From Gryganskiella cystojenkinii (Eukaryota; Mortierellomycota; Mortierellomycetes; Mortierellales; Mortierellaceae), in contig JAAAIG010000036.1 in assembly GCA_015852425.1 (NCBI GenBank), positions 1 through 64,000 on the forward strand: a stretch of DNA of 64,000 nucleotides, in the 5' to 3' direction. Under the pieces are notes generated by a model. The model worked only from the letters and a program-made list of their open reading frames with translations. It searched no databases and had not been told where the DNA came from. The translations under genes were made by a program, and so were the position numbers. Shown here in pieces: positions 564-64,000 of this stretch (position 1 is the first letter of the stretch; every line of letters begins with the position of its first letter).

Positions 564-1100
564 AAGTGTCGTGTCCCCGTTTTGGCAATATGTTGGATAC
601 TTTGGTAATCCTAGTTTTCAGAACGGTGACTACCAAGCGCGTATCGTGTACAGGTGGATATAAATAAAGCGAGGATATTTTGCTTCTCTTTGCACAGCCG
701 CGGGAACCATTGACCAACAAGGAACCAAAAAAAAGTAAGTTAAAAAAAAATTGTTACCACAGTTCATACAGCAATATCACAGTGCTAATATGCAAATAAA
801 AATAGACTTTATTTTCTACATATGCAAACACTCTTTGGTCAAGGGAAGAGAGAGGGGAAAAAGGGGGAGGGGCTAAGGGGCTCGCTGTGAATTAGCCTTG
901 CAACCCTCGGGTCTTGAAGCACTCGCAATTGTTTTGATGGTTTCTTTTACTTCGCCGCTGAGTGTGACTGTTTTGCGGACGCATTGTGGGCAATGCCCTT
1001 GCGCCATGGACGTTTGCTTTTTTTCATATAAATGAGCTATTTTCTTCCCAGCTTCTTCCAAACATCGATCACTTCTCTCTCCGTCTCTCCCTCCCTCCCT
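564..1100. other. Intergenic region, promoter of the F-box/zinc gene
   Basis: No gene seen. There is an A-rich run near 727-750, and a TATA-like CATATAAAT at 1025-1033. The stretch 1040-1100 is strongly C/T-rich, the usual leader just before start codons in this genome, which supports translation from 1101 or 1119 and not from the in-frame ATG at 1032 that overlaps the TATA-like element. Confidence 0.5.
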
Positions 1101-2123
1101 ATGACAATCACAAGAATCATGGACAAGGACGAACTTATCCAGGAACTCCTCCAAACCATCAAAGAACTCCGGATCACCAATGCCAATTTACAATCCTCCT
1201 CTTTCACATTATCCCCCACCGCTGTGGTGACCTCATCCTCTCCCTCAAAGAGCAAGGAGCAAGAAACTCAAGGGTTTGCCGAACGTCTCCCTTTTGAGAT
1301 CTGGGAGCACCACATTCTCCCTTACCTCTACCCTTCCCAGATCGCGCGTTTATCCCGCGCCAGTCAAACTTTTTACAACATGATCTCCTCCTCGCGTTGC
1401 TGGTCAAAATTGTTTCGGAAACTCTTTGGGATCTGGACCCTCCTCGACACCTTGCCCGCCATGCCCGAATCCAAGAGTTACATGTTGTATATCTGTGCAA
1501 TCAGTTCTCGGATCTGTGAAAAGTGTCTGACATATGTGACCCCTGCCTCGAGCACAAACCCTCAGGATATGGCTGCGAGACCCTTACCAATTCAGCTCCC
1601 AAACGCGTACCTACGTCGCCGAGGTCGTGATCAGTACCGTCCCAGTAGCAACAACAGCTCCCCCAGAGAGAGCAACAGCCATTCGACTATGGTGCAGCTC
1701 AACAACATCACAGTCCAACTCCCTACCTTCTCTTCCATCTCGTACATTGGTGAACCAATGGAAGGCGGCTGGTCGATCCAGATGTGTCTCAAATGTAGAC
1801 TTCGTCATCTGGCCCAATACCCGGAACCGGACTATGTCGATCCCAGGAACGAGCAATTTGGAACCTATCTGACCGAAGAGGAAACTAAAAGACGGTACAA
1901 CCTCACGGATCTCGAGCTTTCAAATTTGCCGCACAAGTTCGATCACTATGGCGCGACGGATCCCTCCAAGAAAAAGTATTTTGAGGCCGCGGCGATCAGT
2001 GCCTCCCGAAAAAAACAAGGCGGCAGTGTCGGGGTGGCAAAACATAGAGAAATCGCAGAGTTTAGTCAAGATCGACAAGAACAAAAGACCCGAGCTAGGA
2101 TTCTCGCGTACGGAACCAGATGA
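1101..2123 (+). CDS. F-box protein with CxxC zinc-binding pairs
   Basis: Single-exon gene of 340 residues if started at the ATG at 1101; 1119 is an equally good in-frame start. An F-box lies about 70 residues in (LPFEIWEHHILPYLYPSQ followed by RLSRASQTFYNMI), so the protein probably recruits substrates to an SCF (Skp1-Cul1) ubiquitin ligase. Downstream are two cysteine pairs, CEKCL and MCLKC, separated by about 90 residues, which could bind one zinc ion. The order (F-box, ICAIS segment before CEKC, GEPM before CLKC, then a charged helical end) is repeated in the gene at 22733-23674, so the two are paralogues. The C-terminus is basic and helical. The substrate is unknown. Confidence 0.8.
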   Translation: MTITRIMDKDELIQELLQTIKELRITNANLQSSSFTLSPTAVVTSSSPSKSKEQETQGFAERLPFEIWEHHILPYLYPSQIARLSRASQTFYNMISSSRCWSKLFRKLFGIWTLLDTLPAMPESKSYMLYICAISSRICEKCLTYVTPASSTNPQDMAARPLPIQLPNAYLRRRGRDQYRPSSNNSSPRESNSHSTMVQLNNITVQLPTFSSISYIGEPMEGGWSIQMCLKCRLRHLAQYPEPDYVDPRNEQFGTYLTEEETKRRYNLTDLELSNLPHKFDHYGATDPSKKKYFEAAAISASRKKQGGSVGVAKHREIAEFSQDRQEQKTRARILAYGTR

Positions 2124-17026: not shown

Positions 17027-18631
17027 ATGTCTATCCATCCCTTGACCTACCTCCTTTCCAAACAGCGTTTTGACGAGAAACCGTTTACCCCCAAGGACGA
17101 TGACGAAGAGGTCCTCTCCACGGCTCTGACCGCTTCCTTCGTCTCTAAAAGGTCGACAAGAGCGACGACAAAGACAACAGCTATACCCGATTCAACATTC
17201 TCCTGCTTCTCCTCTTCAACAACAGAACGCGACATGCCAGGACCATTCGAAATCATTGAAATCTTTGAACAAATCATCGACTCCCTCTCCCCCTCTGACC
17301 TGGCTCATTGTGCAGCCGTCTGCAAGTCCTGGTCAGAGCCATGTCTCCAAAGGCTCTGGCAGAGACTCGATCCTGTCCAATTCTCCCATCCAAGTGTCAT
17401 TCGTTCCGGTCACAAATTTGCCCATCTCATTCAACACCTCCATTGCTCCGCCTGTGCTTCTCTCTCCCCCCTCGGAGGCGCCAGAAAAGTCAAGCTCCAT
17501 CTCCGGACCCTTCACCCACCTCACCTCACCCTCGACAACTCGGATCAGATCCTCTCTACTCTGAAACGGATCAAGGATACAGTCCAAGTTCTTTCACTAA
17601 AGTTTGCGCACTCGGGCGATGAAGCCATGAACATCAAGGTTCTCCAGTCGCTTTCACAGTTGAAATCCCTCAAGGAATTGACGCTGAACAATGTCCGGGT
17701 CCCGATTGATTCTTATGAACACTTACTGGAACAAGCGCCTCCTGGATTGGAATCCTTAACCTTGGAACAATGCTGGACCAACTGGACCTTCCAAGCAAAT
17801 GAAGCAACCTTCATCCGTCAAAAACGTAACCGAGCTACTGCAAAAACACCAACCAACAACATAAAACGGTTGCACATTGCTGGCGCTCAGAATAATTTTG
17901 AGACGGTCTTACGAGTCACCCGGTACAGTCCCTTGCTGGAATCCCTGACCTTGTCAGACGAGGAACGACCCTTCTTTGACGTCCGAGGATCGCCCGCTGC
18001 CAGGAACGAAAGTCTCAACGAATTCCGAAAACTTTTGCCCGTCCAATGTCCGCGGCTACGAGAACTGATCATGGTCGGCTTGGCCAGGATCGATGTCGAA
18101 GGTTTCAAGTTGCTTTTAGGAAGTGTCCCTAACATTCGATCTTTTACGACCACCCAAAACGAGAGTCAGACCGACTTTGAAAAGAACCAAAGGTTACAGC
18201 CCTATCAACTTTTTTTATTCGCCAACTTGAGCACGTTGGGACATTTGGTCGGCCCAAAACTCGAGTCGCTGACGGTCGAATCTGCTGGTGTGTTGGCCTT
18301 GATCTCAACAGAAGTCTTGACCATGTTTCCGAATCTGAAGCATTTGAAACTCCGGGAGACCGGCATCCACGTCGATGATTCCACAGCGGTCCGATGGGCT
18401 TGTACGGAATTGGAGACCTTGGAGATGGTCGCCATCGGGCCTAACAACTGGACACCACCAGAATCGGGATCAGATTGGGTCAAGGAGTCCAAGGACAAAC
18501 CCTCGGTCGGGGGTGATTTCGTCCGCCGTCCTGGCGGGAAAGCCTACTCTTTGTACGAAAAGTTTGTCAACAAGGTCAAGAACCTCCCCAAACTGGAGAA
18601 ACATTTTATCGAGTTTTATAGCTTTCAATAA
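17027..18631 (+). CDS. F-box/LRR-like protein
   Basis: Single exon, 534 residues. The F-box is at about residues 75-112 (FEIIEIFEQIIDSLSPSD, then AAVCKSWSEPCLQRLW). A series of leucine-rich strands follows (LKSLKELTLNNVRV, LESLTLEQCW, LESLTLSDEERP, LRELIMVGLARID, LKHLKLRETGI, LETLEMVAIG), typical of LRR-type substrate receptors of SCF ligases. The start at 17027 follows a C/T-rich leader; the ATG at 17234 just before the F-box would give a shorter protein. It ends 111 bp from the convergent gene at 18743. The target is unknown. Confidence 0.78.
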   Translation: MSIHPLTYLLSKQRFDEKPFTPKDDDEEVLSTALTASFVSKRSTRATTKTTAIPDSTFSCFSSSTTERDMPGPFEIIEIFEQIIDSLSPSDLAHCAAVCKSWSEPCLQRLWQRLDPVQFSHPSVIRSGHKFAHLIQHLHCSACASLSPLGGARKVKLHLRTLHPPHLTLDNSDQILSTLKRIKDTVQVLSLKFAHSGDEAMNIKVLQSLSQLKSLKELTLNNVRVPIDSYEHLLEQAPPGLESLTLEQCWTNWTFQANEATFIRQKRNRATAKTPTNNIKRLHIAGAQNNFETVLRVTRYSPLLESLTLSDEERPFFDVRGSPAARNESLNEFRKLLPVQCPRLRELIMVGLARIDVEGFKLLLGSVPNIRSFTTTQNESQTDFEKNQRLQPYQLFLFANLSTLGHLVGPKLESLTVESAGVLALISTEVLTMFPNLKHLKLRETGIHVDDSTAVRWACTELETLEMVAIGPNNWTPPESGSDWVKESKDKPSVGGDFVRRPGGKAYSLYEKFVNKVKNLPKLEKHFIEFYSFQ

Positions 18632-22732: not shown

Positions 22733-23674
22733 ATGCCCAAGAGCAAGAAAAGTTCTTCAACTGGCTCTCGAAAGCCCACGGACTCGTGTGCCAACAAAAA
22801 ACCCTCGGCTACGAACAAAGTCTCAGTTACGAACAAACCCTTGGCTACGGACAAAGCCCCAGCTACCCATAAAACATCAGGAATTAAAAAGGCATCGAGA
22901 GCCAAGATGGTCCCCGGTACCAACAACATCTCGAGCACTCCCCAAATTTCAGGTCAAAACTCGGAAACTAGAAGCACCGTTGAGCTTCCTGCTGAGGTCT
23001 GGGACTTGATTTGCGATTACCTCTATCCCTCCCAGTTGATCCGTTTGAGCAAGGTCAACTCTGACACCCGCAAGGTTGTGTGCTCCCGCCGTCTCTGGAA
23101 CATACTTTTTCGCCGCTTTTACGGGGACGAAAGTACTGTCGCAGTCTTGCCTGGATTCTCCAAGGCTCACAGCACCATGCTGCTCATCTGTGCAATCAGT
23201 CCAAAGATCTGCGAGCAGTGCCTCAAACACTGTGGAACTGAGCGCGAGAATCTGGCCGAGATGCCCTTACCAGCATTTGCGCCGTCTCAGACCCGCTCGA
23301 CCGAGAAGGCCCGTTGTTTGGGAGAACCAATCGATTTCACCTTCGAGGTGCATCTCTGCCTCGACTGTCGCAAGGCGCTTTTCCAAGCCGTGCCAATGAC
23401 TGTCCCACTCGAGATTCAAAAAAAGGCCATGACGATCGAGCAGGCGAGAAAGATGTACCCCAAGGCTGGGATCCCAGAAAGGCCGACCCCAGACATGAAA
23501 AAGCTAGATGGGCACTTTCGACAGGGCATGTTTTTGAAAATGGCTCGAAAGACTCTTGGAGGTGACGTTGGCGTCAAGGCGGCTCACTTCACGTCTTTGG
23601 AGAATGACGAGTACACGGAAAGCCGATACCGCGAGTACATGGATCTCCACCGTGAGCTTACCAAGACCAAGTAG
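22733..23674 (+). CDS. F-box protein with CxxC zinc-binding pairs (paralogue of 1101-2123)
   Basis: Single exon, 313 residues. Residues 1-75 are a Lys/Thr-rich tail with degenerate tandem units (TNKVSVTNKPLATDKAPATHK). The F-box is at about 83-130 (VELPAEVWDLICDYLYPSQ, then SKVNSDTRKVVCSRRLWNILF). Then come ICAISPKICEQCLKHC and GEPIDFTFEVHLCLDC, the same two cysteine pairs in the same places as in the gene at 1101-2123. It is likely an SCF substrate receptor with a small zinc module. It is divergent from the F-box gene at 18743-21796 and shares a promoter carrying PACE-like sites. The target is unknown. Confidence 0.8.
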   Translation: MPKSKKSSSTGSRKPTDSCANKKPSATNKVSVTNKPLATDKAPATHKTSGIKKASRAKMVPGTNNISSTPQISGQNSETRSTVELPAEVWDLICDYLYPSQLIRLSKVNSDTRKVVCSRRLWNILFRRFYGDESTVAVLPGFSKAHSTMLLICAISPKICEQCLKHCGTERENLAEMPLPAFAPSQTRSTEKARCLGEPIDFTFEVHLCLDCRKALFQAVPMTVPLEIQKKAMTIEQARKMYPKAGIPERPTPDMKKLDGHFRQGMFLKMARKTLGGDVGVKAAHFTSLENDEYTESRYREYMDLHRELTKTK

Positions 23675-36794: not shown

Positions 36795-37514
36795 AAAGTT
36801 GGTGTTTCCGACACATGAAAAGATTGCTTGATGCGGCACGGTGATTAATTAATGAACAAGAGTTCATGGGTGGGACTTGATCCAAGGGTTATTCCGAGGA
36901 GCGCTGAGGTAAATAAAGAGACTGGCGCAAAGAGTACCGAAATAGAATTCGGGGTATTCTTTGAGCCCATTTCTACCTCTTCATTGTCAACACCCTCTCA
37001 TACCATTGACGCGTTCACTTCCAGATATGAGTGAGTTCCTCTGAAATATGTCATGTGCATCACGAAGGGGTACCCTGGACGTGCTAATCATACGCTTGAC
37101 AAGCCTCCTACAGCGTAAATAAGGATAGGCATTATTGAAGGACTCTTCGAGTTCCAGAGTTCATGAGCACGGAACTGTACTGTTAGAGTTCGGCAATTTG
37201 TTTCCTCTTTTCCTTCATGTCATGAGAGCCTATGTGCGTTACACGAGGGCGAGGGAGAGAAATGTGCTACAAAGAATGGGTGGATTTGACCAATGCTGAA
37301 GCATTCTTCCCTTCTTTCGCTGCTTTCCGTTCTTCCCGTTACGACCATCCCTTACCATCACATCGATTCTCACTCTCTTCTGTCTCTTGTAAGTCTGAGC
37401 TTGATCTCTTTAGGTACAGTGCCGTGGCGCCTAGTATAGTTGACAGAACGGTTACTAACATTGCCGCCATCTACTCCATGATTGTCAAGACCAGAAAGAA
37501 TTCAAGGAAGCGAC
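36795..37514. other. Region upstream of the NACHT-WD40 gene
   Basis: No gene seen. Some C/T-rich sequence at 37300-37390 may be the leader or promoter of the NACHT gene. Confidence 0.4.
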
Positions 37515-40500
37515 ATGTTCGGTGGTGCGTTTTCATCCTCGCGAAGGGCGTCCTCGCCACAAAAGGAGCTGGAGCTTGCCAACTTTCATCTTGATAATGC
37601 GCGCAAAACCAAGGATGCCCAGATTGTGTTGATGATATGCGATGACGCCGAAGCCGCATTATCCCGGATGAAAAGAGCTGCGAAAAAGACTCTTACGTGT
37701 CCTCTGTCTGTCGAGGATCAAGCCCTGCGCGATGGATTTGCCGGTGCCTATCTCGAGCATGCTAAATTAATGGAGAGTTTAGGCTATAGTGAGATGGCGC
37801 AGGTGAGCTACAAGAGGGCAGAAAAGTGGGGGTAAGTGACAGGTATCTCCCGTACCTGTTCGCATTAGCTGGCTACTTCGTATGTCGTACCTAACACATC
37901 TCTCGATTTGTTTACTGTCCTCTGCCTTCAATAGCCAAGTGCGTCCTGCAATTTCCTCTGCCACTGACAGCACCGGCCGCAACAATGCGCCAATCCCTGA
38001 GAATATCTTCCCTGATGACACGCGTCTACCCACTGTCAAGTGCACGTTGCCGGACGCAGATGAGCGACTCAGTGACACTTCCCAACTCGCTTACTGCCTT
38101 AGCCTTCTGCAAGTGGTGCCGTCACCCGACGAGGTCTTTGAGCCAGCCGCAGGAAATTGGGTGAAATCCACAGAAAGAATGCGGAGGAGAAGGAAAGACT
38201 CAGGACGCTGGCGACAGATCTGATCAGGGCATTCACTCGCGATGAGCTCAAGGATGCCAAGGCCGTCGTAGAGATCGTGTGCCTGGGCCCGGTTCTCGAG
38301 AAAGATGATTTTCATCATTTGCTCATGCTATTTGTCAATGGCATCGAACAGTACAGCTTGCTAGATATCCATTCTCTCGAGGGGCTGGCGCAACTGATAC
38401 AAGGCGCTCCCCCGAGTTACCTCGACGCTGATGACCTAGTCACGATTTTACGAATCCTCAACACGCGCCTACAAGACACTCACAATCAATCTCCAGCTCA
38501 TATCTACCATCTGACACTCGCAGTGTCTAACGTCCTGGATGCCATGGCTGATATCAAGGTTTCAGGTTTAGAGCGCGTAGAGCTGCATGAGCCGCTCTCT
38601 GCTTATTTGAATGGGCTGAAAGGCAGCAACAGCCCTTACTTGGTGTACCAGGCTGCATATGCCTTCCAAGCGCTGCAGTGCGTCCCAGACAACGAATCAC
38701 CCTGGCAGGCAACGATGCGGCGGACTGGAGTTGTTTTGAAAGGGGTCTCGGGGCTAGTAAGCGCGGTAAAAGGTCTGGACGTCAATGGCTTTATCGCAGG
38801 ACTCGGGCATCTTCAGGAGGGACTGGATGAGGTCATCCAGGTAGCGAAAATCGGTTACGAAGGCGTGAGCGCACTGGTTGAGGGGGGACAAGGGCTGCTA
38901 GAGTCTCTCAAAGTCGGTCTCAGTTTCAACCAGAAACGCGCCTGGTATACAGCACTGCGTGGTGCAGACATACTGCTTCGGGACGGGCAACTCGCCAAGT
39001 TCAAGACCCTGGTCTGCGAAGCGCCTTGCCGGCTCGATGTGGCCTTTCAGCTGGGAGTATGCCAGCGCCTCGGGGACCTTACTGCCGATCCACGGTGGGA
39101 CTCCGAGTCTCGCCAAGGTGCTGCTGCATTTCTATGCGAGATTTACCGGAACGATGCGGTGTGGGGTCAGCAACCCCTCATCAAGCAATGGATCCTGCAC
39201 ATTCTTATGCAGTTGGTTTCCATGTTTGGCCCAGCTTTGCCAGGTACGTGTTATGATGGAAAAGGCGCACAGTACACCAGCTTCTTTTCGTGAAAGATAG
39301 AGCTCACTGACAGCACGCACTAACGGCATTTGCAACACCTTATTGTGACCTATACAATGCATAGGCGTCGAATCTTTACTGCAGGAGCTTGAATCGAATG
39401 GTGATGAGGCGAAAAGGATTCTTTATCGGGATTGCCGAAAGGAGAATCGAAGCTTACGTCCACTACAAGTCCACGTACCAACCATCACGTCTCCATCATT
39501 GCTTGATCTTGTTCAAAACAAGCCCGATGTTGAAGCCGACCTGAGACGACTGAGAAAGCAACGATTGAAGGAACGAAGTGAAGCCGTTTACATCCCTCCT
39601 CAAGCCAAAACTAACCTGCAAGCGTCCGATGACAACCTATTCGACTTGACAAGAGAAGTTGAAGGCTTCCTGAACAGTGACCATGAAGTGATGCTCGTAC
39701 AAGGCGATTCGGGCGGTGGCAAGTCGACCTTTAACCGGCAGCTCGAGTGCAACTTGTGGGATGCCTACAAGAAAAAGGAAGGCCGAATTCCACTCTTTAT
39801 CAGCTTGCCCACAATCGATAAGCCAGAACAGGATCTAATCACCAAGCACCTACGGAAGGCAGAATTTACCGACTCCCAAATCCGAGAGCTGAAAGACTAC
39901 CGCAAATTCATCTTGATTTGTGACGGATATGATGAGAGCCAGCAAACACACAACCTGTACATGAGCAATCGACTGAATCAGCCGGGAGAATGGAGTGCTC
40001 AGATGGTAATTAGCTGCCGCAGCGAATACCTTGGTCTTGATTATCGGGATCGGTTCCAACCAGCAGATCGCAGTCATCAAGCACGGCCAGCCTTGTTTCA
40101 AGAAGCGGTCATTGCGCCATTCTCTAAAGATCAAGTTCAAGAGTACATCCGAAAATATGTGTCTGCGATGGCACCGCTCTGGCAAGTGACGGACTACCGG
40201 CGGGCACTTGATATGATCCCTAACCTGCAAGACCTGGTCAAGAACCCGTTTATGTTAACGCTCTCCCTGGAGGTGTTGCCACGCACGGTGCATCCAGGAC
40301 AAGACCTCTCGTCCATCCGGGTCACTAGAGTCGCATTGTATGACCAGTTCATGGAACAGTGGCTTGAACGCGGCAAGAAGAGGCTTGGGGGGAAAGACTT
40401 GAGTCCTCAAGCGAGGACGGACTTTGAGAGACTGAGCGATGAAGGCTTTACTCAGAACGGCATGGAATTTCTCAAGGATTTGGCTGGTGCAATCTACGAG

Positions 40501-43500
40501 CATCAGGCAGGTAATCCCGTGGTAGCCTATTCGCACAAACGAGACCAAGAGACATGGAAAAAAGCGTTTTTCTCTCGGGAAGACGAGAATCAGCTCCTGC
40601 TGGAAGCGAGTCCTCTGACCCGCAGTGGCAATCAGTACCGGTTTATCCATAAATCATTGCTGGAATACTGCTTGGCACGTGCGGTGTTTGAGCCACGAGA
40701 CGTGGATAGCGCAAGGCGCGCGGCCTTAAATGAAGCCCTGCCGCGTCGAGGGAGCGTCCATTCCGCCATGAGCTTTGAAAACCAGGCTTTTGTAGAGGAA
40801 TCCGTGACAGTCATTGAAAAGTCCCTGCTCGACTCGCCCTTGGCACGCGAAAGCTTTGTGGGCCAGCCGTCGATTCTACAATTTTTAGCAGAGCGTGTAC
40901 AACAGGAACCTCTCTTCAATCAGCAACTGCTCGCAATGATCGAATTATCCAAAGTCGACAAACAGGCACACAAGGCGGCGGCTAATGCGATCACGATATT
41001 AGTCAGAGCCGGGGAACGGTTCAATGGTGCGGACCTAACAGGCGTCAGGATTCCAGGGGCTGATCTGACTGGTGGAGAATTCGATTCTGCGCAGTTACAA
41101 GGCGCGGATTTGAGGAAGGTCAATCTTCGCAATGTTTGGTTGCGTCAAGCCGATTTGAGTGGAGCACGGATGACAGGCGTACAGTTTGGCGAATGGCCAT
41201 ATCTCACAGAAGACAGCGCGGTGCTTTCTATCGCGTATTCGCCCGATGGGAAGACCTGTGCAGTGGGCACTGACGCCGGAACGATCAGCGTGTACGACAC
41301 CGCGACTTGGGCAAAAAACCACACTTTACACGGCCATAGCGGACGTGTTACGAGCGTGGTATACTCGCCAAGTGGCCAGCAGATAGCCTCGGGAAGTCAT
41401 GACACGACGGTGCGCCTGTGGGACGCACAAACTGGCGAACCCGGTCCCATCTTAAGCGGCCATACCAAGAACGTTAGAAGCGTGCTGTATTCACCCAGCG
41501 GCCAGCAGATCGCCTCGAGCAGTGAGGGCTACACTGTGCGGCTGTGGGAGGCACAAACCGGTGCACCTGGACCCACCTTAAGCTGTAGTGACAGCTCCGC
41601 AAGAAGCGTTGTATATTCACCAAGCGGCCAGCAGATCGCCTTGGGAGATGGTCACATGGTGCGGCTGTGGGATGCACAAACTGGCACGCCTGGTCCCATC
41701 TTAAGCGGTGGTGAAACCTATGTGACAAGCATTGTGTATTCGCCAAGTGGCCAGCAGATCGCCTCCGGGGGAAGTTCTGACAATACGGTGCGGCTGTGGG
41801 ACGCGCAAACCGGTGCACCCGGTACCATCTTACGTGGTCACACCCACAGAGTTAACAGTGTGGTGTACTCGCCAAGCGGCAAGCAGATCGCGTCAGGAAG
41901 TATGGACAGTACGGTCCGGTTATGGGACGCACATACCGGTGCACCCGGTGCCATCTTAAGCGGTCATTCCAAGAATATTGTTAGCCTGGTTTATTCGCCT
42001 AGTGGCCAGCAGATCGCCTCCGGCAGTAATGATATGACAGTGCGGCTGTGGGACGTGCAAACTGGTGCACCTGGACCCATCTTAAGTGGTCATACCAGTT
42101 GGATCACGAGCGTGGAGTATTCGCCCAGCGGCCAGCAGATAGCCTCGGGCAGTTACGACTACACGGTTCGGCTGTGGGACACACAAACCATTGCATCTAG
42201 TCTCAAACTAAGCGGCCATACCGAGGGAGTTAACAGCGTGGAATATTCGCCGAGCGGCCAGCAGATCGCCTCGGGCAGTTATGACAATACGGTTCGGTTG
42301 TGGGACGCGCAAACCGGAGCACCCGGTCCCACCTTAAGCGACCTGGCCGAGGGGGTTAACAGCAGTTACGACTTAAGCGACTATATCGACGGGGTTAACA
42401 GAGTGGTGTATTCGCCAAGCGGACAGCAGATCGCCTCTGGAAGTCGGAACTCTACTATTCGGCTGTGGGACGCGCAAACCTGTGCACTCGGTCCTATCTT
42501 AATTGGCCATGACTACGATGTTAGAAGCGTAGTATATTCACCAAGTGGCCAACAGATCGCTTCGGGAAGTGATGACAATACAGTGCGGGTGTGGGACGCA
42601 GAAACTGGTGCACCTGGACCCATTTTAAGTGGTCATACCGGATATATCACGAGCGTGGTGTATTCGCCCAATGGCCAGCAGATCGCCTCGGGCAGTTACG
42701 ACAACACGGTTCGGTTGTGGGACGCACAAACCAATTCACCCGGTCTCATACTAAGCGGCCATACCGAGGGTGTTAACTGTGTGGTGTATTCGCCAAGTGG
42801 CCAGCAGATCGCCTCGGGAAGTGAGGATGAGACGGTTCGGCTGTGGGACGCACAAACTGGTGAACCCGGTCCCATCTTAAGCGGTCATACCGAGAAGGTT
42901 AGAATCGTGGTGTATTCATCCAGCGGCCAGCAGATCGCCTCGGGCAGTTACGATAAGACAGTGCGGCTGTGGGACGCGCAAACCGGTTCACCTGGCCCCA
43001 TCTTAAGCGGCCATACCTGGGGAGTTAACAGCGTGGTGTATTCGCCCAGCGGCAAGAAGATTGCTTCGGGCAGTTCCGACAGTACAGTGCGGCTGTGGGA
43101 TGTGAAGTCCAGTCATTGTTTGGCAGTCGTTGAAGATTTTCATGGACCCATCGCAAGCATTGCCTGGAACGTAACTCACAACGGCGAGTTTTTCGCAACC
43201 GGCTGCTACGATAAGACTGTTCGCTTGTGGCAGGTCATAGAAGAGGGCGATTGCTATAAGGTGCGCCTGCAATGGAGTTCTATGCATGATAGACTTACTG
43301 TATCTGGCACCACTATCCAAAGCGTGCAAGGCCTAAGCAGGATTAATATGCATTTGTTAAAGCAGCGCGGCGCTGTGGGCAAGCCAGTTCCCCCTACGGG
43401 CCTCCGTGAGGCTAGTGCGAAGCTAATCAGCATGGCATCGATGGTATCTCATTTCATGTTGCCGTCAAATCACAGCAGCTCGAATGCTTCCCCTGAGACC

Positions 43501-44037
43501 ATTCTTCTCAGTGAACAGTCAGCAAAGCCGGTTGAACCGTCGAACGTCTCTCAGCTTTCCCGAGCATCTCGCAATTGGTTCCCAAAGGGTGCTTCAATAC
43601 TACAGCAAGTTGACTCAGCTTCTGATGTAGGTAGTGGTCGAGATTCTCCCAAAACACATAGTACAACTTCAAATTGCACAGTTGCAGCGCTGGAGGAACT
43701 GGTGGAGAAGAGGCTACAAGAGCACAAACAATCGCTACGCGGACGACAAGATCAGAGTGAGGTGCAAACGCAGAGCCTCCAGGAACTGCAGGATGTCTGG
43801 AAGGAGCAGATTATGATACATGAGCAGCTGAAGCAGGGCCTCCAGGGACTCATGCGTGAACAGCTGAGAGAGCAAGAGCAGGCCCTGCAGGAACTCATGC
43901 GTGAGCAGCTGAGAGAGCAAGAGCAGGCCCTGCAGGAACTCATGCGTGAGCAGTTGAAGGAGCAAAAGCAGTCGTATGAAATGCAGATCAGGGAGCTAAA
44001 GGAGTTTTTGTCAACGATTTTGAAGGCAAGGTCATAG
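37515..44037 (+). CDS. NLR-like NACHT - pentapeptide repeat - WD40 STAND protein (frame break near 38157)
   Basis: Exons 37515-37831, 37935-about 38157, about 38157-39243 and 39365-44037 give roughly 2,100 residues. The N-terminal 600 residues are helical and unrecognised. The NACHT NTPase has Walker A GDSGGGKST (39703-39729) and Walker B FILICDGYDES (39907-39939). Pentapeptide repeats follow (FNGADLTGVRIPGADLTGG type, about 41023-41193). Then come 16 WD40 repeats of about 42 residues (41215 to about 43240); 14 are almost identical (VYSPSGQQIASGS, TVRLWDAQTG). The end is a coiled coil with three 45-bp tandem repeats (43846-43980). This is the architecture of fungal STAND proteins in self/non-self recognition (HET-E/HET-D type), with the effector domain unknown. 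The change from frame 1 to frame 3 at 38150-38175 has no plausible intron, so it is a one-base deletion, an assembly error or a tiny intron. Confidence 0.8.
41215..43240 (+). repeat. 16 tandem WD40 repeats with high internal identity
   Basis: 126-bp period at DNA level. Most units share long identical runs such as GGCCAGCAGATCGCCTCGGG and CGGCTGTGGGACGCACAAAC. Variation is concentrated in the few codons before TVRLWD and between SGHT and the next SVVYS, the usual ligand-facing positions. The first (41215-41340) and last two units are diverged. Unit 9 carries a 12-residue insertion (SSYDLSDYIDGV). Confidence 0.85.
43846..43980 (+). repeat. Three 45-bp tandem repeats encoding a coiled coil
   Basis: Units 43846-43890, 43891-43935 and 43936-43980 encode ELMREQLREQEQALQ with few changes. 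Units 1 and 2 are nearly identical in DNA; unit 3 is diverged at its end. They extend the C-terminal coiled coil of the NACHT-WD40 protein. Confidence 0.8.
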
Positions 44038-45203: not shown

Positions 45204-45262
45204 GCTTGTGGCAACCAAGCGTTCATAGCGACGTTGTTTTTCGATCCTTCGATGTTGGCTCC
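45204..45262 (+). pseudogene. Fragment of 28S rRNA gene, relic 3
   Basis: GCTTGTGGCAACCAAGCGTT, then CATAGCGACGTTG and TTCGATCCTTCGATGTTGGC: the same 28S segment with the same left boundary as relics 1 and 2, but only about 59 bp long. It ends 95 bp before the start of the RNase H ORF. Confidence 0.75.
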
Positions 45263-45356
45263 TTTATTAGAGCTCTCAAGGACATACAGTATTGTTGTTT
45301 ACAGCTCTTTGCTCGTTACTCCTTTCTCATTCTATCTAAATCACTCTCTCAACATC

Positions 45357-45953
45357 ATGCTGGCTAGTACTCACTTCCCGCACGAAAGCGCGATCAACAC
45401 AATCAACTTTCCAAGTGTCATCTTCGACGATGAAACTGCAGAGAAAATCTTAAACACTAGAATTTCTTTGGAAAGTCAGCTCGGTATACACCATCTCTAC
45501 TGCGACGGATCTTTTCACAACCTTGACGTCGACAACACTCGCATGAGCTTTGCAGTAGTTTATAAAAGCGCGCACAAAACGCTCAATCTTGCGATTTCAG
45601 GCACTATACAAGGGACCTCATCCTCAACAAGAGCCGAGATTGCTGGCATATTGGCGGCCATTCTTTGCTGCCCCCGCGACCATCCCGCAACAATATATTG
45701 CGACGACCTTACGACTGTTCATCAGTTTTCCTCCTTGATTCAGTTTCCTACCAGCACACAGCAACATCTGCACTCACCTAATGCCGATTGGTGGGGAGCA
45801 GTAAAACACGCTTACAGCCAACAAGGTGGACAGATCACGGTCCAGTGGGTGCGTGGGCACAGCGGAGTGCTTGGAAATGAGGCTGCTGATGCAATGGCGG
45901 ATAAAGCACACACAGATGATTTTTTTGCACCTTGGGAGGTAAATACACTCTGA
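45357..45953 (+). CDS. RNase H domain ORF of retrotransposon type
   Basis: 198 residues from the ATG at 45357; the frame is open back to 45234 but without a better start. The RNase HI catalytic set is complete: Asp50 in YCDGS, Glu94 in TRAEIAG, Asp116 in IYCDD and Asp178 in GNEAADAMAD, with His168 in VRGHSG. This C-terminal domain type accompanies reverse transcriptases of LINE-like elements, where it removes RNA from the RNA:DNA hybrid. No reverse transcriptase is found in the window, so this is either the 3' remnant of a 5'-truncated non-LTR element or a stand-alone copy. The frame is intact, so recent insertion or retained function is possible. Confidence 0.75.
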   Translation: MLASTHFPHESAINTINFPSVIFDDETAEKILNTRISLESQLGIHHLYCDGSFHNLDVDNTRMSFAVVYKSAHKTLNLAISGTIQGTSSSTRAEIAGILAAILCCPRDHPATIYCDDLTTVHQFSSLIQFPTSTQQHLHSPNADWWGAVKHAYSQQGGQITVQWVRGHSGVLGNEAADAMADKAHTDDFFAPWEVNTL

Positions 45954-49664: not shown

Positions 49665-51395
49665 ATGATCAAACGACGGTTCCCGGACAACATCCCAGAG
49701 GAGCTGCTTCTCATCGTTGCTGACTTTCTCACGCCAAAAAACATCGCGTCCTGTCTTCGGGTCTCGAAGCATTGGAACAAGGTCTTCCACCCTCTCTTCT
49801 GGAGAAACATCTCGGTCACCTCCCCAACCGCAAACCGCTACTTCTCCAACGCGCCCGACAACAAGCTGATCCAAACCAATGCCCCTCTCGTCCGGTCCCT
49901 CAAATGTCATTTCTTCACCGCACTCCATCCTTTCTGTCAGTCCAAAAAGATGACCAATCTCCAACGACTCGATCTCTGGGGTCTCGTCCTCCCCAACAAT
50001 AACAAGGCCATCCTCTGGGTCCCGCTCTTGAAACTCATTGCCAGAAACCCAGGTTTAAAATACCTGACCATCTACAACCTCTGTGGCACCGTCGATAACC
50101 TCGCTGCAAAGACCTTTCCTTTCTTGCCGAATCTGACGGCGATGAAGCTTCATGCCGGTCGATCCGTCTCTACAAAGTCACTGGAGGCCTTTCTGGAACT
50201 CTTGCCCCCAAGTATCCGCTACCTCAAGTTGCACCTGAGCGTCAGTGGCGAAAAAAAATACCTTGCACAACCTGGTAGCGCCTACCCTGTGTTGAACCTC
50301 AGGCACCTGGTCTGTGCTGGATTCATGTCTGATTGTGAGATCGTGATGAAGAACTTGATCAAGCGATGCCCCGATCTCGAGACCCTGACCTGTGAGTCGT
50401 CATTATCCAAACTCACTCTCGACGCGCCTTGTCCAAAACTTCGAAACCTAATCTTTGATGACGACTTTATCGGCTTTATGAGCGACGAACAACGTGGGGC
50501 GCTCCTGACTCGGTGGATCTCACCCCTGGGCTTGCGTTCCGTCGATATGGTGGCCGACAAGAAACCCGTCGGACCTCTGACCATCGTAGCCATGCACAAA
50601 CACGACTCGACCTTGCAAGAGATCAAGACCTCCAAGCTCGAGGGAGCGGATCTGATCACGTTCCTGTACTCTTGTTCTCAATTGAGGGTCCTTCAATCGG
50701 GATCCAAGTCTGCCGAGGATCCGTCCAAGGTTGATTCCTTTAGCTCTTATTTGGAGGAGATGAGAATCGAACGAGGTCAACCACAAGTTGTTTATGATTT
50801 CACCGTAAACGCCCCGGTCTTGGTCGCGTCCACGCCCGAAGTTTGGCTCTCTGCTGGAACACTGACCACTCTGGAGATGCTCCTCTCCAACATTCCTCGA
50901 CCGGATCTTCAGGGTGTTGTGATCCGGGACAAGATGCTGGGGCCTTACCCGGATTCGCTCTGGCAAGAGAGTCGGACGTTGCAGAAACAGGTGTACACTC
51001 GACTGGGTCATTGCAAACGCCTCCGCAAGCTGATTCTCGGAGTCTCTGTCGTCCGCGCATTGGATGTGAGAGCCGCCAACAATTGTATCTATGAGGGACT
51101 CGAGTTCTCGTTGGACAGTGGATTAGGTCTCTTGGCCGGGTTGGAGGACCTGAGAGTGTTGGATGTCCAGATGCTGGAGCACAAGATTGGGATCCCTGAG
51201 CTGGAGTGGATGAAGCTCCACTGGAAAAAGTTGGAGCGGATTATTGGATTGGAACCAGACGAGACGAGTCTGAAGTGGATCAAGAAACACAAGCCAGCGT
51301 GGATTCGACCACTACCGCCGAAGATTGAAGACCCAGATTATGTTGCACCTCAAAAGACGAGTCCGTTCAGAACTTGGACCTACGTAGGTCATTAA
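49665..51395 (+). CDS. F-box/LRR-like protein
   Basis: Single exon, 576 residues, starting right after the leader. The F-box is at residues 8-48 (IPEELLLIVADFLTPKN, then LRVSKHWNKVFHPLFW). LRR-like strands follow (LQRLDLWGLVLPNNNK, LKYLTIYNLCGTVDN, LTAMKLHAGRSV, LETLTCESSLSKL, LRNLIFDDDF, LEDLRVLDVQML). Probable SCF substrate receptor. Its promoter contains the MITE 200 bp upstream of the start, which could affect its expression (inference). Confidence 0.78.
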   Translation: MIKRRFPDNIPEELLLIVADFLTPKNIASCLRVSKHWNKVFHPLFWRNISVTSPTANRYFSNAPDNKLIQTNAPLVRSLKCHFFTALHPFCQSKKMTNLQRLDLWGLVLPNNNKAILWVPLLKLIARNPGLKYLTIYNLCGTVDNLAAKTFPFLPNLTAMKLHAGRSVSTKSLEAFLELLPPSIRYLKLHLSVSGEKKYLAQPGSAYPVLNLRHLVCAGFMSDCEIVMKNLIKRCPDLETLTCESSLSKLTLDAPCPKLRNLIFDDDFIGFMSDEQRGALLTRWISPLGLRSVDMVADKKPVGPLTIVAMHKHDSTLQEIKTSKLEGADLITFLYSCSQLRVLQSGSKSAEDPSKVDSFSSYLEEMRIERGQPQVVYDFTVNAPVLVASTPEVWLSAGTLTTLEMLLSNIPRPDLQGVVIRDKMLGPYPDSLWQESRTLQKQVYTRLGHCKRLRKLILGVSVVRALDVRAANNCIYEGLEFSLDSGLGLLAGLEDLRVLDVQMLEHKIGIPELEWMKLHWKKLERIIGLEPDETSLKWIKKHKPAWIRPLPPKIEDPDYVAPQKTSPFRTWTYVGH

Positions 51396-58829: not shown

Positions 58830-61800
58830 CTATCCAAGATCACATTGGAACCACTCGCCTGTTCCCTCAGCGGCCCGAGTTCGAACACGATGATCAAGGT
58901 GGTGTTGTCGGATCTGATTCAGCGCCATCTCTTCGATCTGAATCTGATGCAAACTCTTCTTTTGGTGACGTGCCTTCAACAGCATATTCCTGTCCCTTAG
59001 TTGTTGGTTCTGAATGATGGCAAATGACGAAAGACTTGACGGGGACGCAGAAGAATTTGGACCGATGAGTGCAGACATCCCTGACGCCGAGAGTGCCGTT
59101 GCCGTTGCAGCTGAGGTTGTGGTAGAAATCGGTCCTGTGGTGGGAGAAGACGAGAAGGAACCGCGACGACGGCCTAGATCATCGACATGATCAATTGCTG
59201 GGAAATCTGGATTATATCCTGGCCCAGAGGTTAATCCGGAACCACCGCTACTTTCAAGCTTTGGATACATTTGAGTCTGATGGCGAGTGACGGCTCGAAG
59301 GGGCTCGGGAATCGCGTCCAGTCTCCAAGGTGCCTCCGAAAACCCGCGCTCGACTCCACTGGGACGACTACGTGGTAAATAAGGGATAACCTTGATGTTA
59401 ATCAGAAATAACAGACTATAAGATCCAGAAGTACGTAAATGCATCGTAAACATAACATATCATCAGGATTACTTACAGTGTTTCCTTCACAGGCTTTGAA
59501 GTCGCCATCGCGACTCTGGGAACATCTTTGGTCTGGTTACGGAACAAGGCGAGCTCACTCTGCTGAATATCCAACAGTAAGGAAGTCCCGACAGGGCTGC
59601 CATTAATAACCTCCGCTTGAGTATAACCACCGCCACTACTGCTTCCCCGCAAGAAACTTGCGGGTGAGTCTGACCCAGGGAGGCTCGTGGACCCAGCCGC
59701 AGGAACTTTACCCCAGACAGTCGGTGAAGGCGACGATGACCCCGCCGCAGCCGCCGCCGATAGCTCTGAAGTCGCATCCTGATGCTGTTGCTGCAAAAGC
59801 CGTCGACGCTCCTTCTGTGACATCTTGGGGGCCTTTGCACCAATGACCGGTGATGACCCTGCTGTTGTTGAGCTGACTGCAAGGCCATGTCGCTGTTCTT
59901 GCTGCAAAATTTCCCGCAGTGAAGGTCTGGATGCTGATGAGAAGGATGGCTGGGCTGCAGAAGCAGGGGCAATTGTAGCTATTGGATTATTCGGACGGCC
60001 ATCTGATACATCATCACTCGAGTCACCCATGTCCATGGATGAGTGGTGCCCAGTCAAGGTCGGAATCGGAACCCAGCTTGTTTTCCGAGTCGATGATTGT
60101 ACCGGTGGTGAGGGGATTTCAGCCGAATGCAATGCAGCGGTCGAAAGAGTTGGCCAGTCAGGCAATGGGCCTTCCACTGCAACACTTGGATTGCTCTGCT
60201 CCAATCTACCGGGTCCAGATGACAGCGTACGATTGATCACAGGTGAGTGCGAGATCGGAATCACTGTGGTTGGCGAGGAGGCGCCTGGTTGCGGTGGTGG
60301 AGGAGCTTGAGTCGTGCTATGTGCTCGCGATTGGAGACCTGGTGAAGGCAACGATCCCGAGTCCGTCCTGAAAAGAGGTGTTAACGGTTTATAAAACTCT
60401 CTTCCATCCAGAGCGATTTTCGTCCGCATGTCTCGAACCGCTGCCTCATCAGGAAGATGCAGACCAGACCGTACAAAAGGCATAAAGACATCTTGTTTTT
60501 GGTTCAGAGCATCTTCCAATAGTAATAGAATTTCGTCCTCGACACCGTCAAGCCATCTAACATGTACACAAATGGAAGAAAAAAGGGTCAAAAAACTTGA
60601 AGACAATAGAGCCTCCATTTCGTTCTCGAAATAAGACACTGTAAACCAACAATGTACCTCTGATCGAGCACCATTTCGATATTGTGGCAGATATAGTCCA
60701 CGCATGTCGACTTGAGAGCATCCGCAGCATACATGAGTGCTATTTCCAAGAAACTGACAACAGTCTTTGGTCGAACTGGAAAACAACAATTGAAAAAGAG
60801 GTTAGCACCAGAATCACATTACCTAAGCATAAGGAAAGGTTGCAAAGTCGTCCTGAGTTATACCTTGCTCTCCAAGAACTTGCTCGCAAATTTCCTTCAG
60901 TCGATCCATCAGCAGCTCATCGGCAATCTTCAGTACGTTTATCACTAGCTGCAACAGGTCGTCCATCTCTTCTTTTTCTATAAGAGAATAAAAAAAAGAT
61001 AGGATAACATGAGAATTATAAGCTGCCATCTTGCAGAGTTGATCTTTTTTAACAAAATCAAGTGTCCTCACCAGCATCATTGAACATTTCTGGCCCACAG
61101 TCTGTGTATATGTAGCGCATCACTAACGTCATTGATTCTAGGTCCATGTGATTCATATTGACTTCCAGGATCCTGCTCATATCATCTACGAGCCCAGAGG
61201 GTTTGGCAGGTATCCGCCGTGTATCTTGTCGATCCCGAGTCCATTCGCCTGTTCTCACCAGCATAGCGTTGAAGAAAGGTGAACGATGACCAATCACCAT
61301 CTGATGAGCCAGCATGTGCTTGCCATCCTTCAAAAGTAGCTTGATATCGAGCAATCCTGCAAACAGTGATGGAAACTCGATCACCTGCTTCAGGTTGTTC
61401 GACAGGCTGGCGCTACACACATGAGTGAATGAATACTGAAGAGCTGCCTGGAGCGTGGGCAAGGACAATTCGAGAGCCAGATGGTAGAGTTGTTGTCGAA
61501 CTCTGATACTGTGTTGCTTACGATTTTTTGGCAAGTCCAGGGCGTCCCAAAAGGGGTCAAATCGATCGCTGTACAAGAACTGAAGGAGTAAGACGGCGGT
61601 CGCAAACTCGACATCGAGAGCTACAGTGTAAAGTGGACGTCCAGTCCCATCGTTTTCCGGTATAGGTGCGACAGTGACCAGCGAGCCCACTTTGACTGTC
61701 TGACGCGGCGTCTCGACAAAACACCGCTGAAGAACTGGACTGCGTGCTGCGAGAATGATCCGATGAGCCCCCAGAGTTCGCTTTCCGGCCTGCAACTCGA

Positions 61801-64000
61801 TATCAAACAGGTGGCTTCCAGAGACCGAGTTGTCAAAGCTGCCCGTTTTTGATGAGGAATCTAACAACGGAACCAAATCATGGTCCCAGCTTAGCTCAAT
61901 ATCCTGCCAGCCGCGAGTATTGATTTTCCATGGGTCCGGCACGACTTCGTCGTCGTCATCATCGTCGTTGTCGACATCAACATCGACTTCGGTACTCTCG
62001 CCATTGTTCTTTTCGTTGTCTTGATAAATATGAAACTGTGATAGCGACTGTTCCAGATCTCCGCCCAAGGATCCTGGTCGGACTTGTACTGGAGTCAATG
62101 TCGAGTCTGATCGGATAGCAGCCCAGGATCCGCTTGGATTGGCAAAGACCTGTACAATTCGATCGAGATGATGCACCCTATATGATACAACAAAAAGGTG
62201 TTAAATTTAAAGTCGACAACGTGCACCATATCAACAATAATACGTGTAGTGATTTTACCTTTGCCACTTGACATTACGTCCCACTGCGGCACTCTTGTTG
62301 GTTCCAATATAAACATGCCCTCCCTTTGTCAAAAGGACGACTGATCCGTTCTGACCAAGCGCGAAATCAATTGCATGCGTCCGATCACCGCCATATGTCC
62401 ACACTCGTCTTGGCCGATCCGGTAAAACGATGGATGAAAAGGGTATCGCATGACTCGGTGGTAAAGATCCAAGAGTGATGCCAGCATCTACCTCCGGATA
62501 ACTCCAGACATGAATATCGCCCCATCCCGTCATCATCCCAAACTTGTTCTCGGAACATGCAATCCTGCGCGGCCGGTTCTCGTTCACAACGCGAGGATAG
62601 TTCAGTTCTGAGAACCCGTCGGGATAAGGAAAGAGCGAAAACGAGACCTTGTGGTAGGCATACTTGTAAAAAACGATGACATCGTTGGAGGACATCAAAC
62701 AGGCGGTCGCTGCATCTGAGGCCGCCACTTGCATGATCAATCCTGGAGGGATGGTAGCGACCTTACGGGGTCCGAGTTGAATGTCACCCTTGCGTTCATA
62801 GCCGAGTTGTCCATAGTTGAATCCAAAAGTGTAGAGCTCTGTCTCGGTATGGATGACGGTGTGCCACTTGGAGGCGGCGGCGCCCTTGACAACAAGCTTT
62901 GAAATGTTGGCGATGACACGCTTTGGCGAGTACTGAATCGGATCCTGGCCGCTCGGAGGTGACTCCATTGGGTAACCCAGCTGTCCAAACTTATTGTTTC
63001 CTAGCGTGTAAACCTCTCCTCTGCTCGTCACCAGAACGGTATGGTCTCTTCCGAGGGCTGTAGTCACGACAATCCCAGAGACACCTATAACTGGAGCCGG
63101 ACTCGCCTGCATTTTACGATCCAACCCTAATCGACCGCTTGTTCCAAACCCCCAGACCTTGGCACTCTGACCGGCTTCCGAAGTTGCCACAACCGTATGA
63201 TACTTTCCCATAGAGAGCTGATAAAGTGCAGCTTTTGCGGCCTTGACTCTTGGAAAAGTGATGACGCTGCTCTGATAGGGAAACTTGACGAGCTCCGGTA
63301 ATTTCCTGTCGTCTCCGTCGTTATGTCCGAGTGTAAAGTTGGAATTGGAGCCCCAGGTGTAGAGGGCATCACCTGGACAGGGTCCAGGTTTGAGAGAAAC
63401 AGGTAAAGTGGCATGACAGACATCAAGAGCTGTGTTCCTGTCCTTGTCCTAAGTACAATTAGAATTTTAAAAAAAAGGTGGAGACACGTTTGTGAGCCAA
63501 GGAATCTGACATGGTCTTCCTATGCCCTTGAAGCGCCTTTGAAATGAAAATTGTCGTTATCTCCAAAATGCTGTACCTCCAGAGACATGTTGATGTCCTT
63601 GTGCTTCAACAATTCGAGTGCAATGCGGAGATGTCCCAGATATAGCGCCCTATTTGTGAATAGGAGATAACACTTGTTCGTTTACATTTTTCTTTGTTCA
63701 GTTTCGCATTCTCCACTTCGTCCAGGAAGGAAAGAATGCAATCAAGGCAGAGTCATTTACCGATGAAGTGCAGTCCAGCCCGACTCTGTATCCTTCTCGT
63801 TGATATTGAGCCGAGGGTGTTCCAGTAACCGCTTGACCAAAACAAGGTCGTTCGATGCGACTGCGCGGTGGAGAGGTGTTGTGCCCTCGTCATCCTTGCG
63901 ATTGATGTCCATAAGAAGGGGGTCGATTTGACCTCTTTGAAAGGAACGCCAGGAAGGGTGGGGGCTGTTGTTAATGTTGTTCAGGTGTGCATGTCCAGGG
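58830..64000 (-). CDS. IBtk-like ankyrin - RCC1 - BTB - BTB protein, 5' end outside the window
   Basis: Exons in plus coordinates: 58830-59367, 59477-60556, 60658-60775, 60864-60977, 61072-62177, 62259-63448, 63577-63649, 63761 to beyond 64000. All phases agree; about 1,486 residues are visible and the N-terminus is missing. Order: ankyrin repeats (DDEGTTPLHRAVASNDL, then SGWTALHRALYLGHLRIALE); RCC1 repeats (LYTWGSNSNFTLGH, VWGFGTSGRLG, VYTLGNNKFGQLGYP, LYTFGFNYGQLGYE); BTB 1 (LFDIELQAGKRTLGAHRIIL); BTB 2 (DGKHMLAHQMVIGHRSPFF); BACK-like helices; a long Ser/Pro-rich region; and the C-terminal helix SLHQIQIEEMALNQI of the IBtk family. Animal IBtk is a substrate adaptor for CUL3 ligases; the same role here is inferred. 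Confidence 0.87.

What the first reader, a model, noticed from the sequence alone, without database searches (positions are those of the whole stretch)
41215..43240. WD40 array with near-identical repeats in a NACHT protein (HET-E/D style)
Fourteen of 16 repeats are almost identical in DNA, while a few codons per unit vary. This is the signature of fast-evolving, recombining recognition arrays in fungal STAND proteins that control incompatibility or defence. Combination with pentapeptide repeats between NACHT and WD40, an unrecognised 600-residue helical N-terminus and a coiled-coil C-terminus makes the effector mode unclear and possibly new.
Basis: partly seen in the sequence, partly recalled or inferred. 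Interest (0 to 1): 0.75.

Follow-up and report, generated by a model that had tools for sequence, protein, structure and literature searches.

The report
Fungal NACHT-WD40 receptor with variable array
A soil fungus carries a large immune-type receptor gene whose repeated sensor domain varies at a few surface positions; it is one copy of an already known, very large gene family that is shared with bacteria living inside related fungi.

Summary
The array is real: 16 WD40 units at 41206-43233 in a 1512-aa frame. It is not near-identical. Among the 14 central units DNA identity averages 76%, peaks at 89%, and 0 of 91 pairs reach 90%, below the published definition of high internal conservation. 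Variation is focused on unit positions 15, 16, 18, 34 and 36; four of these have the spacing of the positively selected codons of HET-D/E. The 'unrecognised' N-terminus is Pfam ARM_5, in print as NLR_Helical. The organism is most likely Gryganskiella cystojenkinii (Mortierellaceae), with 60 NACHT matches in its genome. The same architecture, and its presence in the endosymbiont Mycoavidus, are published. Added here: related arrays mostly keep unit order and number, while whole sensor halves seem to be exchanged: the window gene is about 94% identical to paralog C107 from exon 1 into NACHT, but 74% in the array. Trees favour bacteria-to-fungus transfer, with moderate and model-dependent support. 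The window copy has one frame break in exon 2. Best reading: an NLR-type receptor, a new member of a known kind; ligand and output unknown.

The parts
37515..37831 (+). Exon 1, helical N-terminal region (TPR-like by eye, no Pfam family)
   Evidence: Homologous start in P0006/P0017; GT splice site; no Pfam match over cut-off
37935..39241 (+). Exon 2, ARM_5 (PF23948) helical solenoid; ARM_5 match 38175-39209; one frame break at about 38140-38190
   Evidence: frame break; AlphaFold2 model
39365..44037 (+).
39688..40167 (+). NACHT NTPase domain
   Evidence: PF05729 E 4.6e-10, 43.9 bits
41008..41193 (+). Short pentapeptide-repeat stretch
   Evidence: Sequence matches to solved pentapeptide proteins at ORF residues about 504-565
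41206..43233 (+). WD40 array, 16 units, sensor; 14 central units 41299-43101
   Evidence: AlphaFold2 model
42307..42471 (+). Tenth unit, 55 aa with an insertion; low-confidence break between 9 units before it and 7 units from it on
43534..44034 (+). C-terminal tail with coiled-coil-like end; 45-nt tandem repeat at 43832-43971

Best explanation
The gene is one copy of the large ARM_5-NACHT-pentapeptide-WD40 NLR family of Mortierellaceae. Shown: the domains, the family, and the focused variation. Inferred: the WD40 array folds into two beta-propellers whose variable loop residues bind a non-self or modified-self ligand; binding lets the NACHT NTPase exchange nucleotide and oligomerise; this clusters the helical N-terminus (exon 1 plus ARM_5), which acts as or recruits the output, probably cell death or a defence response. 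Specificity appears to change mainly by substitutions at unit positions 15, 16, 18, 34 and 36 in an array that keeps its order, and by exchange of the pentapeptide-WD40 half between paralogs, rather than by free shuffling of near-identical repeats. The family was probably acquired from endofungal Burkholderiaceae related to Mycoavidus.
For: Domains. 60 NACHT and 77 ARM_5 stretches in the genome; 2239 related proteins, 120 listed. Five most variable positions over 94 units of 8 own-genome arrays: 16, 34, 15, 18, 36; pN/pS 0.93 there against 0.31 in the other 37 positions; 93 of 94 units distinct at 16/18/34/36. Unit number quartiles 11, 12, 12. Variable residues in register in several groups, at background in the M. 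alpina P0029/P0030 against P0038/P0045 comparison although NACHT is 91-93% identical. Window against C107: 93.9% over 3341 bp of exons 1-3, pentapeptide region 77%, array 74%; dN/dS 0.16-0.21 outside the sensor half. Rooted tree with named fungi as one clade inside paraphyletic endobacteria, AU p 0.016 against endobacteria as one clade.
Against: Positive selection is not shown: the counting ratios are near 1 and site 36 is not above 1. In the 7-protein in-register group the in-order partner is the best-matching unit for only 3 of 11 to 10 of 11 units per pair, and one pair agrees at just 44%. Identity between the window and C107 falls gradually before 40700 rather than at a sharp breakpoint. 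The NACHT-only tree does not make fungi one clade and gives AU p 0.07; FastTree nested a Mycoavidus clade among fungi. The window copy has a broken frame. No function was measured; the ARM_5 model has no PDB match at E<=0.001.
Confidence: 0.65

Rival explanations
1. HET-E/D-style array: highly similar repeats that shuffle and homogenise by unequal crossing-over within and between loci and control vegetative incompatibility.
For: NACHT plus C-terminal WD40; variable positions with the HET-D/E codon spacing; within-genome diversity of units.
Against: 0 of 91 unit pairs at 90% DNA identity and no amino-acid pair at 85%; units are not more alike within the window array (0.74) than to array L039 (0.74); relatives keep unit number and register; N-terminus is ARM_5, not HET.
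Confidence: 0.1
2. The array and pentapeptide region simply diverged fast after the C107 duplication; no sensor half was exchanged.
For: Identity falls gradually before 40700; variable positions evolve fast.
Against: 74% in the array is no more than the usual identity between units of the window and of other arrays (0.59-0.74), while dS elsewhere is 0.10-0.24. The window's pentapeptide region matches C359 (80%) better than C107 (77%).
Confidence: 0.25
3. This copy is a pseudogene, so its array is a relic and not an active sensor.
For: ARM_5 of the window gene reads in two overlapping frames, whereas 29 of 29 other loci in L009-L038 read in one.
Against: dN/dS to C107 is 0.16-0.21 in the three exons and the 1512-aa last exon has no stop, so loss would be recent; a sequencing or assembly error is possible.
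Confidence: 0.3
4. The array is an assembly collapse or expansion.
For: Short-read assemblies of highly similar WD40 arrays are unreliable (PMC12222747 passages); the sequencing technology of this genome is not known to me.
Against: The longest exact repeat in the array is 32 nt, and 16 units also fit the pattern in P0011 and P0014 (14 units found by the profile in each, as in the window).
Confidence: 0.05

Closest known systems
Mortierellomycete NACHT-PPR-WD40 NOD-like receptors with NLR_Helical / ARM_5 N-terminus (PMC9815663 and PMC11291939, passages seen)
   Same: Same domains in the same order, same host group, homologs in Mycoavidus
   Different: The window copy has a coiled-coil tail not seen in 49 database proteins and a broken frame in exon 2
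NLRs of the endosymbiont Mycoavidus (P0014, P0017)
   Same: Whole architecture including ARM_5; 69% and 67% identity to the window over ORF residues 1-600; the same positions vary in the P0014 array
   Different: Bacterial, in one uninterrupted frame
Podospora HET-E / HET-D / HNWD family (PMC1805685, PMC2873952, PMC4986451, PMC12222747; passages, and section 9 of the first)
   Same: NACHT plus WD40 sensor; variable positions with equal spacing
   Different: HET N-terminus there; units up to 100% identical and shuffling there, 69% mean amino-acid identity here
Apaf-1 (PDB 3sfz)
   Same: Foldseek match of the array model to full-length murine Apaf-1; a STAND NTPase with two WD40 propellers (recalled)
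   Different: 22% identity in that match; CARD N-terminus (recalled)

Membership tests
Mortierellomycete ARM_5-NACHT-pentapeptide-WD40 NLR | ARM_5 / NLR_Helical N-terminal region | tested here: met
   PF23948 E 3.5e-74 on exon 2
Mortierellomycete ARM_5-NACHT-pentapeptide-WD40 NLR | NACHT, pentapeptide stretch and WD40 array in this order | tested here: met
Mortierellomycete ARM_5-NACHT-pentapeptide-WD40 NLR | Groups with Mortierellaceae proteins in a tree | tested here: met
   Window with L009, then P0005 and P0004
HNWD / HET-E, HET-D | High internal conservation of WD40 units (85% or more over 100 aa) | tested here: not met
   Maximum pair identity 83.3%, mean 68.9%; T-reks itself was not run
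HNWD / HET-E, HET-D | N-terminal HET domain | tested here: not met
   Pfam at E<=10 gives ARM_5 on exon 2 and only a sub-threshold WWE_1 match on exon 1
HNWD / HET-E, HET-D | Variable codons in two pairs with spacing +2, +16, +2 | tested here: met
   Positions 16, 18, 34, 36 against codons 7, 9, 25, 27
HNWD / HET-E, HET-D | Positive diversifying selection at those codons | tested here: inconclusive
   Counting only: pN/pS 0.93 at five positions against 0.31
HNWD / HET-E, HET-D | Concerted evolution of units within and between loci | tested here: inconclusive
   Within-array identity 0.68-0.79, between arrays 0.57-0.74, window equal to its nearest array; register kept in relatives
HNWD / HET-E, HET-D | Repeat-number polymorphism between strains and incompatibility function | not testable with these tools
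   No strains or phenotypes available

The most novel reading that the evidence does not exclude
Mortierellaceae NLR immunity descends from the receptor set of their own endosymbionts, and both partners still run the same toolkit. The M. cysteinexigens chromosome (G047, 2.8 Mb) has 89 NACHT matches, 85 over the curated cut-off by my count of the table, and the P0014 array varies at the same positions. Repertoires would diversify by putting different whole sensor halves on conserved ARM_5-NACHT chassis, and would serve against common enemies or in the dialogue between fungus and bacterium.
Probability: 0.3. Interest if true: 0.7.

Novelty: new member of a known kind. Interest (0 to 1): 0.38.

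Why it matters
The gene itself is an ordinary member of a known family. The family is a good test bed: many paralogs, focused variable residues, arrays that can be compared position by position across genera, and close homologs in the endosymbiont. It lets one ask how an NLR repertoire that was probably acquired from bacteria diversifies, and whether exchange of sensor halves rather than shuffling of repeats makes new specificities.

Tried and rejected
Rejected: near-identical repeats; assembly collapse as a likely cause; a new N-terminal domain. A fungus-to-Mycoavidus back-transfer, suggested by the FastTree tree, was dropped because with a site-heterogeneous model the named fungi form one clade; the NACHT-only tree does not settle it. 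An ortholog of the window array was sought with the array as query (7989 of 7991 scored candidates at E<=0.001, 120 listed): the best identity listed is 70% (P0122, 99% of the query), so none was found in that list. The ARM_5 model had 0 PDB matches at E<=0.001 and only weak armadillo/HEAT matches. The NACHT region gave no PDB sequence match besides pentapeptide proteins (20 sequences).

Choices that shape the counts: the database proteins are the 120 listed of 2239 hits, those most like the window. The 73 rows are a hand-picked part of the 127 rows; L073, L079, P0069 and L008 were dropped as long rows. The protein sets were picked by me after seeing the 45 pairs printed. Unit statistics use only gap-free 42-aa units.

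Full report
Observation. The reading frame 39499-44037 encodes NACHT, a short pentapeptide stretch and 16 WD40 units at 41206-43233. The 14 central units are related but not near-identical: mean DNA identity 75.6%, maximum 88.9%, 0 of 91 pairs at 90% or more; mean amino-acid identity 68.9%, maximum 83.3%. High internal conservation is defined in print as 85% identity over at least 100 aa (PMC4986451, passages), so the array does not meet it. It is still far more self-similar than ordinary WD40 proteins, for which PMC1805685 (passages) gives rarely more than 10-20%. The longest exact repeat is 32 nt, so collapse in assembly is unlikely.

Gene anatomy. The frame is the last exon of a longer gene. 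Exon 1 (37515-37831) and exon 2 (37935-39241) are supported by homologs and GT/AG sites. Exon 2 is Pfam ARM_5 (E 3.5e-74), so the N-terminus is not unrecognised. ARM_5 of the window gene reads in two overlapping frames, while 29 of 29 other loci of L009-L038 read in one; the break lies at about 38140-38190 and the closest paralog is intact there. dN/dS against that paralog is 0.16, 0.21 and 0.17 in exons 3 (to 40598), 2 and 1, so any loss of function is recent, or the break is a sequence error. AlphaFold2 gives an all-helical ARM_5 (pLDDT 75.6, pTM 0.77) with only weak armadillo/HEAT matches in the PDB, none at E<=0.001. The array is modelled as propeller strands in two parts, 35 strands before and 28 after a low-confidence break in the insertion of the tenth unit, so 9 and 7 units (pLDDT 81.5, pTM 0.51). 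How the first part closes is not resolved. The best PDB matches include 2ymu and Apaf-1.

Organism and family. Locus L010 (contig C136, 61,699 bases) and P0011, a Gryganskiella cystojenkinii protein whose contig is 61,699 bases, sit together at zero branch length, so the window is most likely from that species (Mortierellaceae). The genome has 60 NACHT matches and 77 ARM_5 stretches. A search with ORF residues 1-600 gave 2239 proteins at E<=0.001, 120 listed; those listed with an organism name are of Mortierellaceae genera (family recalled) except two of Mycoavidus (P0014 69%, P0017 67%). That the helical N-terminus is shared with Mycoavidus, and that NACHT-PPR-WD40 receptors moved between Mycoavidus and Mortierellomycota, are in print (PMC9815663 and PMC11291939, passages).

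Variation in the array. In 8 own-genome arrays (94 gap-free units) the five most variable positions are 16, 34, 15, 18 and 36. pN/pS is 0.93 there against 0.31 in the other 37 positions (window alone: 0.81 and 0.26). Site pN over the overall pS exceeds 1 with its bootstrap interval at 15, 16, 18 and 34, not at 36. 93 of 94 units have a distinct residue set at 16/18/34/36. The spacing of 16, 18, 34 and 36 equals that of HET-D/E codons 7, 9, 25 and 27 (PMC1805685 section 9). This fits a ligand-binding face. Positive selection is not proved, since at the variable sites themselves pN/pS is close to 1.

How arrays change. Of 121 proteins (120 database, plus the window) 116 have units, with quartiles 11, 12, 12 and range 1-21. 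In a group of seven (Entomortierella, Mortierella hygrophila, Dissophora, M. alpina, Haplosporangium, Linnemannia zychae and one unnamed; names) variable residues agree at 44-88% between in-order units against 22-29% for other units, though the in-order partner is the single best match for only 3 of 11 to 10 of 11 units per pair. Mycoavidus P0014 and three unnamed relatives agree at 87-91% against 10-11%. Three Benniella proteins agree at 42-48% at variable positions and 79-83% elsewhere, with every in-order partner the best match. By contrast M. alpina P0029/P0030 against P0038/P0045 have NACHT 91-93% identical but variable residues at background, 10-13%. The window gene and C107 show the same contrast: 93.9% identity over 3341 bp, blocks of 150 bases at 89-98% from 37450 to 40600 and 76% in the next, then 77% in the pentapeptide region and 74% over the 693 bases of array that C107 still holds. 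I read this as exchange of the sensor half; fast divergence is the rival, because the drop is not sharp. No listed protein keeps the window's own array (best 70%).

Origin. A scan of bacterial genome contigs gave 10 loci with relatives of the NACHT-pentapeptide region, the closest in Candidatus Glomeribacter gigasporarum (49%). ARM_5 was found in 3 of 9 genomes of those loci, in 4 of 398 genomes sampled from the Glomeribacter family and in 9 of 232 of the Chlamydiae MAG's phylum, 7 over cut-off. G047 and G062 encode P0014 and P0017 at 100%, hence are M. cysteinexigens and Mycoavidus sp. HKI; G027 is placed with them from sampling and genome size only. In an ARM_5+NACHT tree rooted on Chlamydiae and Myxococcales MAG proteins, 40 fungal rows form one clade (SH-aLRT 99, starred) and endobacteria are paraphyletic; holding the endobacteria and four unnamed rows together is rejected at AU p 0.016, for a group chosen after a tree was seen. 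Long outgroup branches are a caution that the tool itself prints. A NACHT-only tree with Legionellales/Gammaproteobacteria outgroups is weaker: fungi are not one clade, AU p 0.07. The FastTree tree nested one Mycoavidus clade among fungi. Bacteria-to-fungus transfer, as PMC11291939 proposed, is thus favoured but not settled.

Endosymbiont repertoire. M. cysteinexigens (G047) has 89 NACHT matches on one 2.8-Mb contig (150 of 164 candidates scored), against 22 in G062, 11 in G027 and 3 in Glomeribacter, and 60 in the 35-Mb fungal genome. I did not see such a count in the passages I read. The searches were Mycoavidus with WD40, with horizontal gene transfer and Mortierella, with NACHT, and Mortierell- with NOD-like receptor, endosymbiont and WD40. 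Most of the papers listed were not opened, and supplements were not searched.

Literature seen. Passages only: PMC9815663, PMC11291939, PMC5658179 (hits in the reference list only), PMC4986451, PMC12222747, PMC2873952. PMC1805685: passages and section 9. All others: search listings. Remarks marked recalled rest on memory.

Verdict. A real, ordinary member of a large known NLR family, with HET-E/D-like focused variation but without near-identical repeats. The useful additions are arrays that keep their register, the apparent exchange of sensor halves, the frame break in this copy, and the size of the receptor set in the endosymbiont.

Noticed in passing
G047:C1 (Mycoavidus cysteinexigens, 2.8 Mb): 89 NACHT matches on one bacterial endosymbiont chromosome, most in open frames of over 1000 aa; G062 has 22, G027 11, Glomeribacter 3. 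P0005 as query gave 157 matches in G047.
   Followed up: partly
G008 (Chlamydiae bacterium OFTM140), L058-L067: A Chlamydiae MAG has 11 ARM_5 stretches in long open frames, so the domain also occurs, expanded, outside fungi and Burkholderiaceae; 9 of 232 genomes of that phylum have a match.
   Followed up: partly
window 43534-44034: The C-terminal tail is unusual in the family: 0 of 49 database proteins with the closing motif have a similar coiled-coil-like end, and in the genome only C136 matches its first 94 residues at 58%. Repetitive queries may be under-reported.
   Followed up: partly
G000:C177, C745, C431, C323, C508, C531 and others: A second group of paralogs has ARM_5 and NACHT in one uninterrupted frame of about 1300-2300 aa, unlike the window gene with its introns.
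   Followed up: no
window 1032-2123, 6009-9002, 17027-18631, 22733-23674, 49665-51395: 5 of 10 other large ORFs scanned have F-box-like matches (2 of them over the Pfam cut-off), and 61058-62176 has a BTB domain.
   Followed up: no
window 45234-45953: An RNase H ORF (PF00075, E 6e-13) about 1.2 kb downstream of the receptor gene; possibly a retroelement remnant.
   Followed up: no
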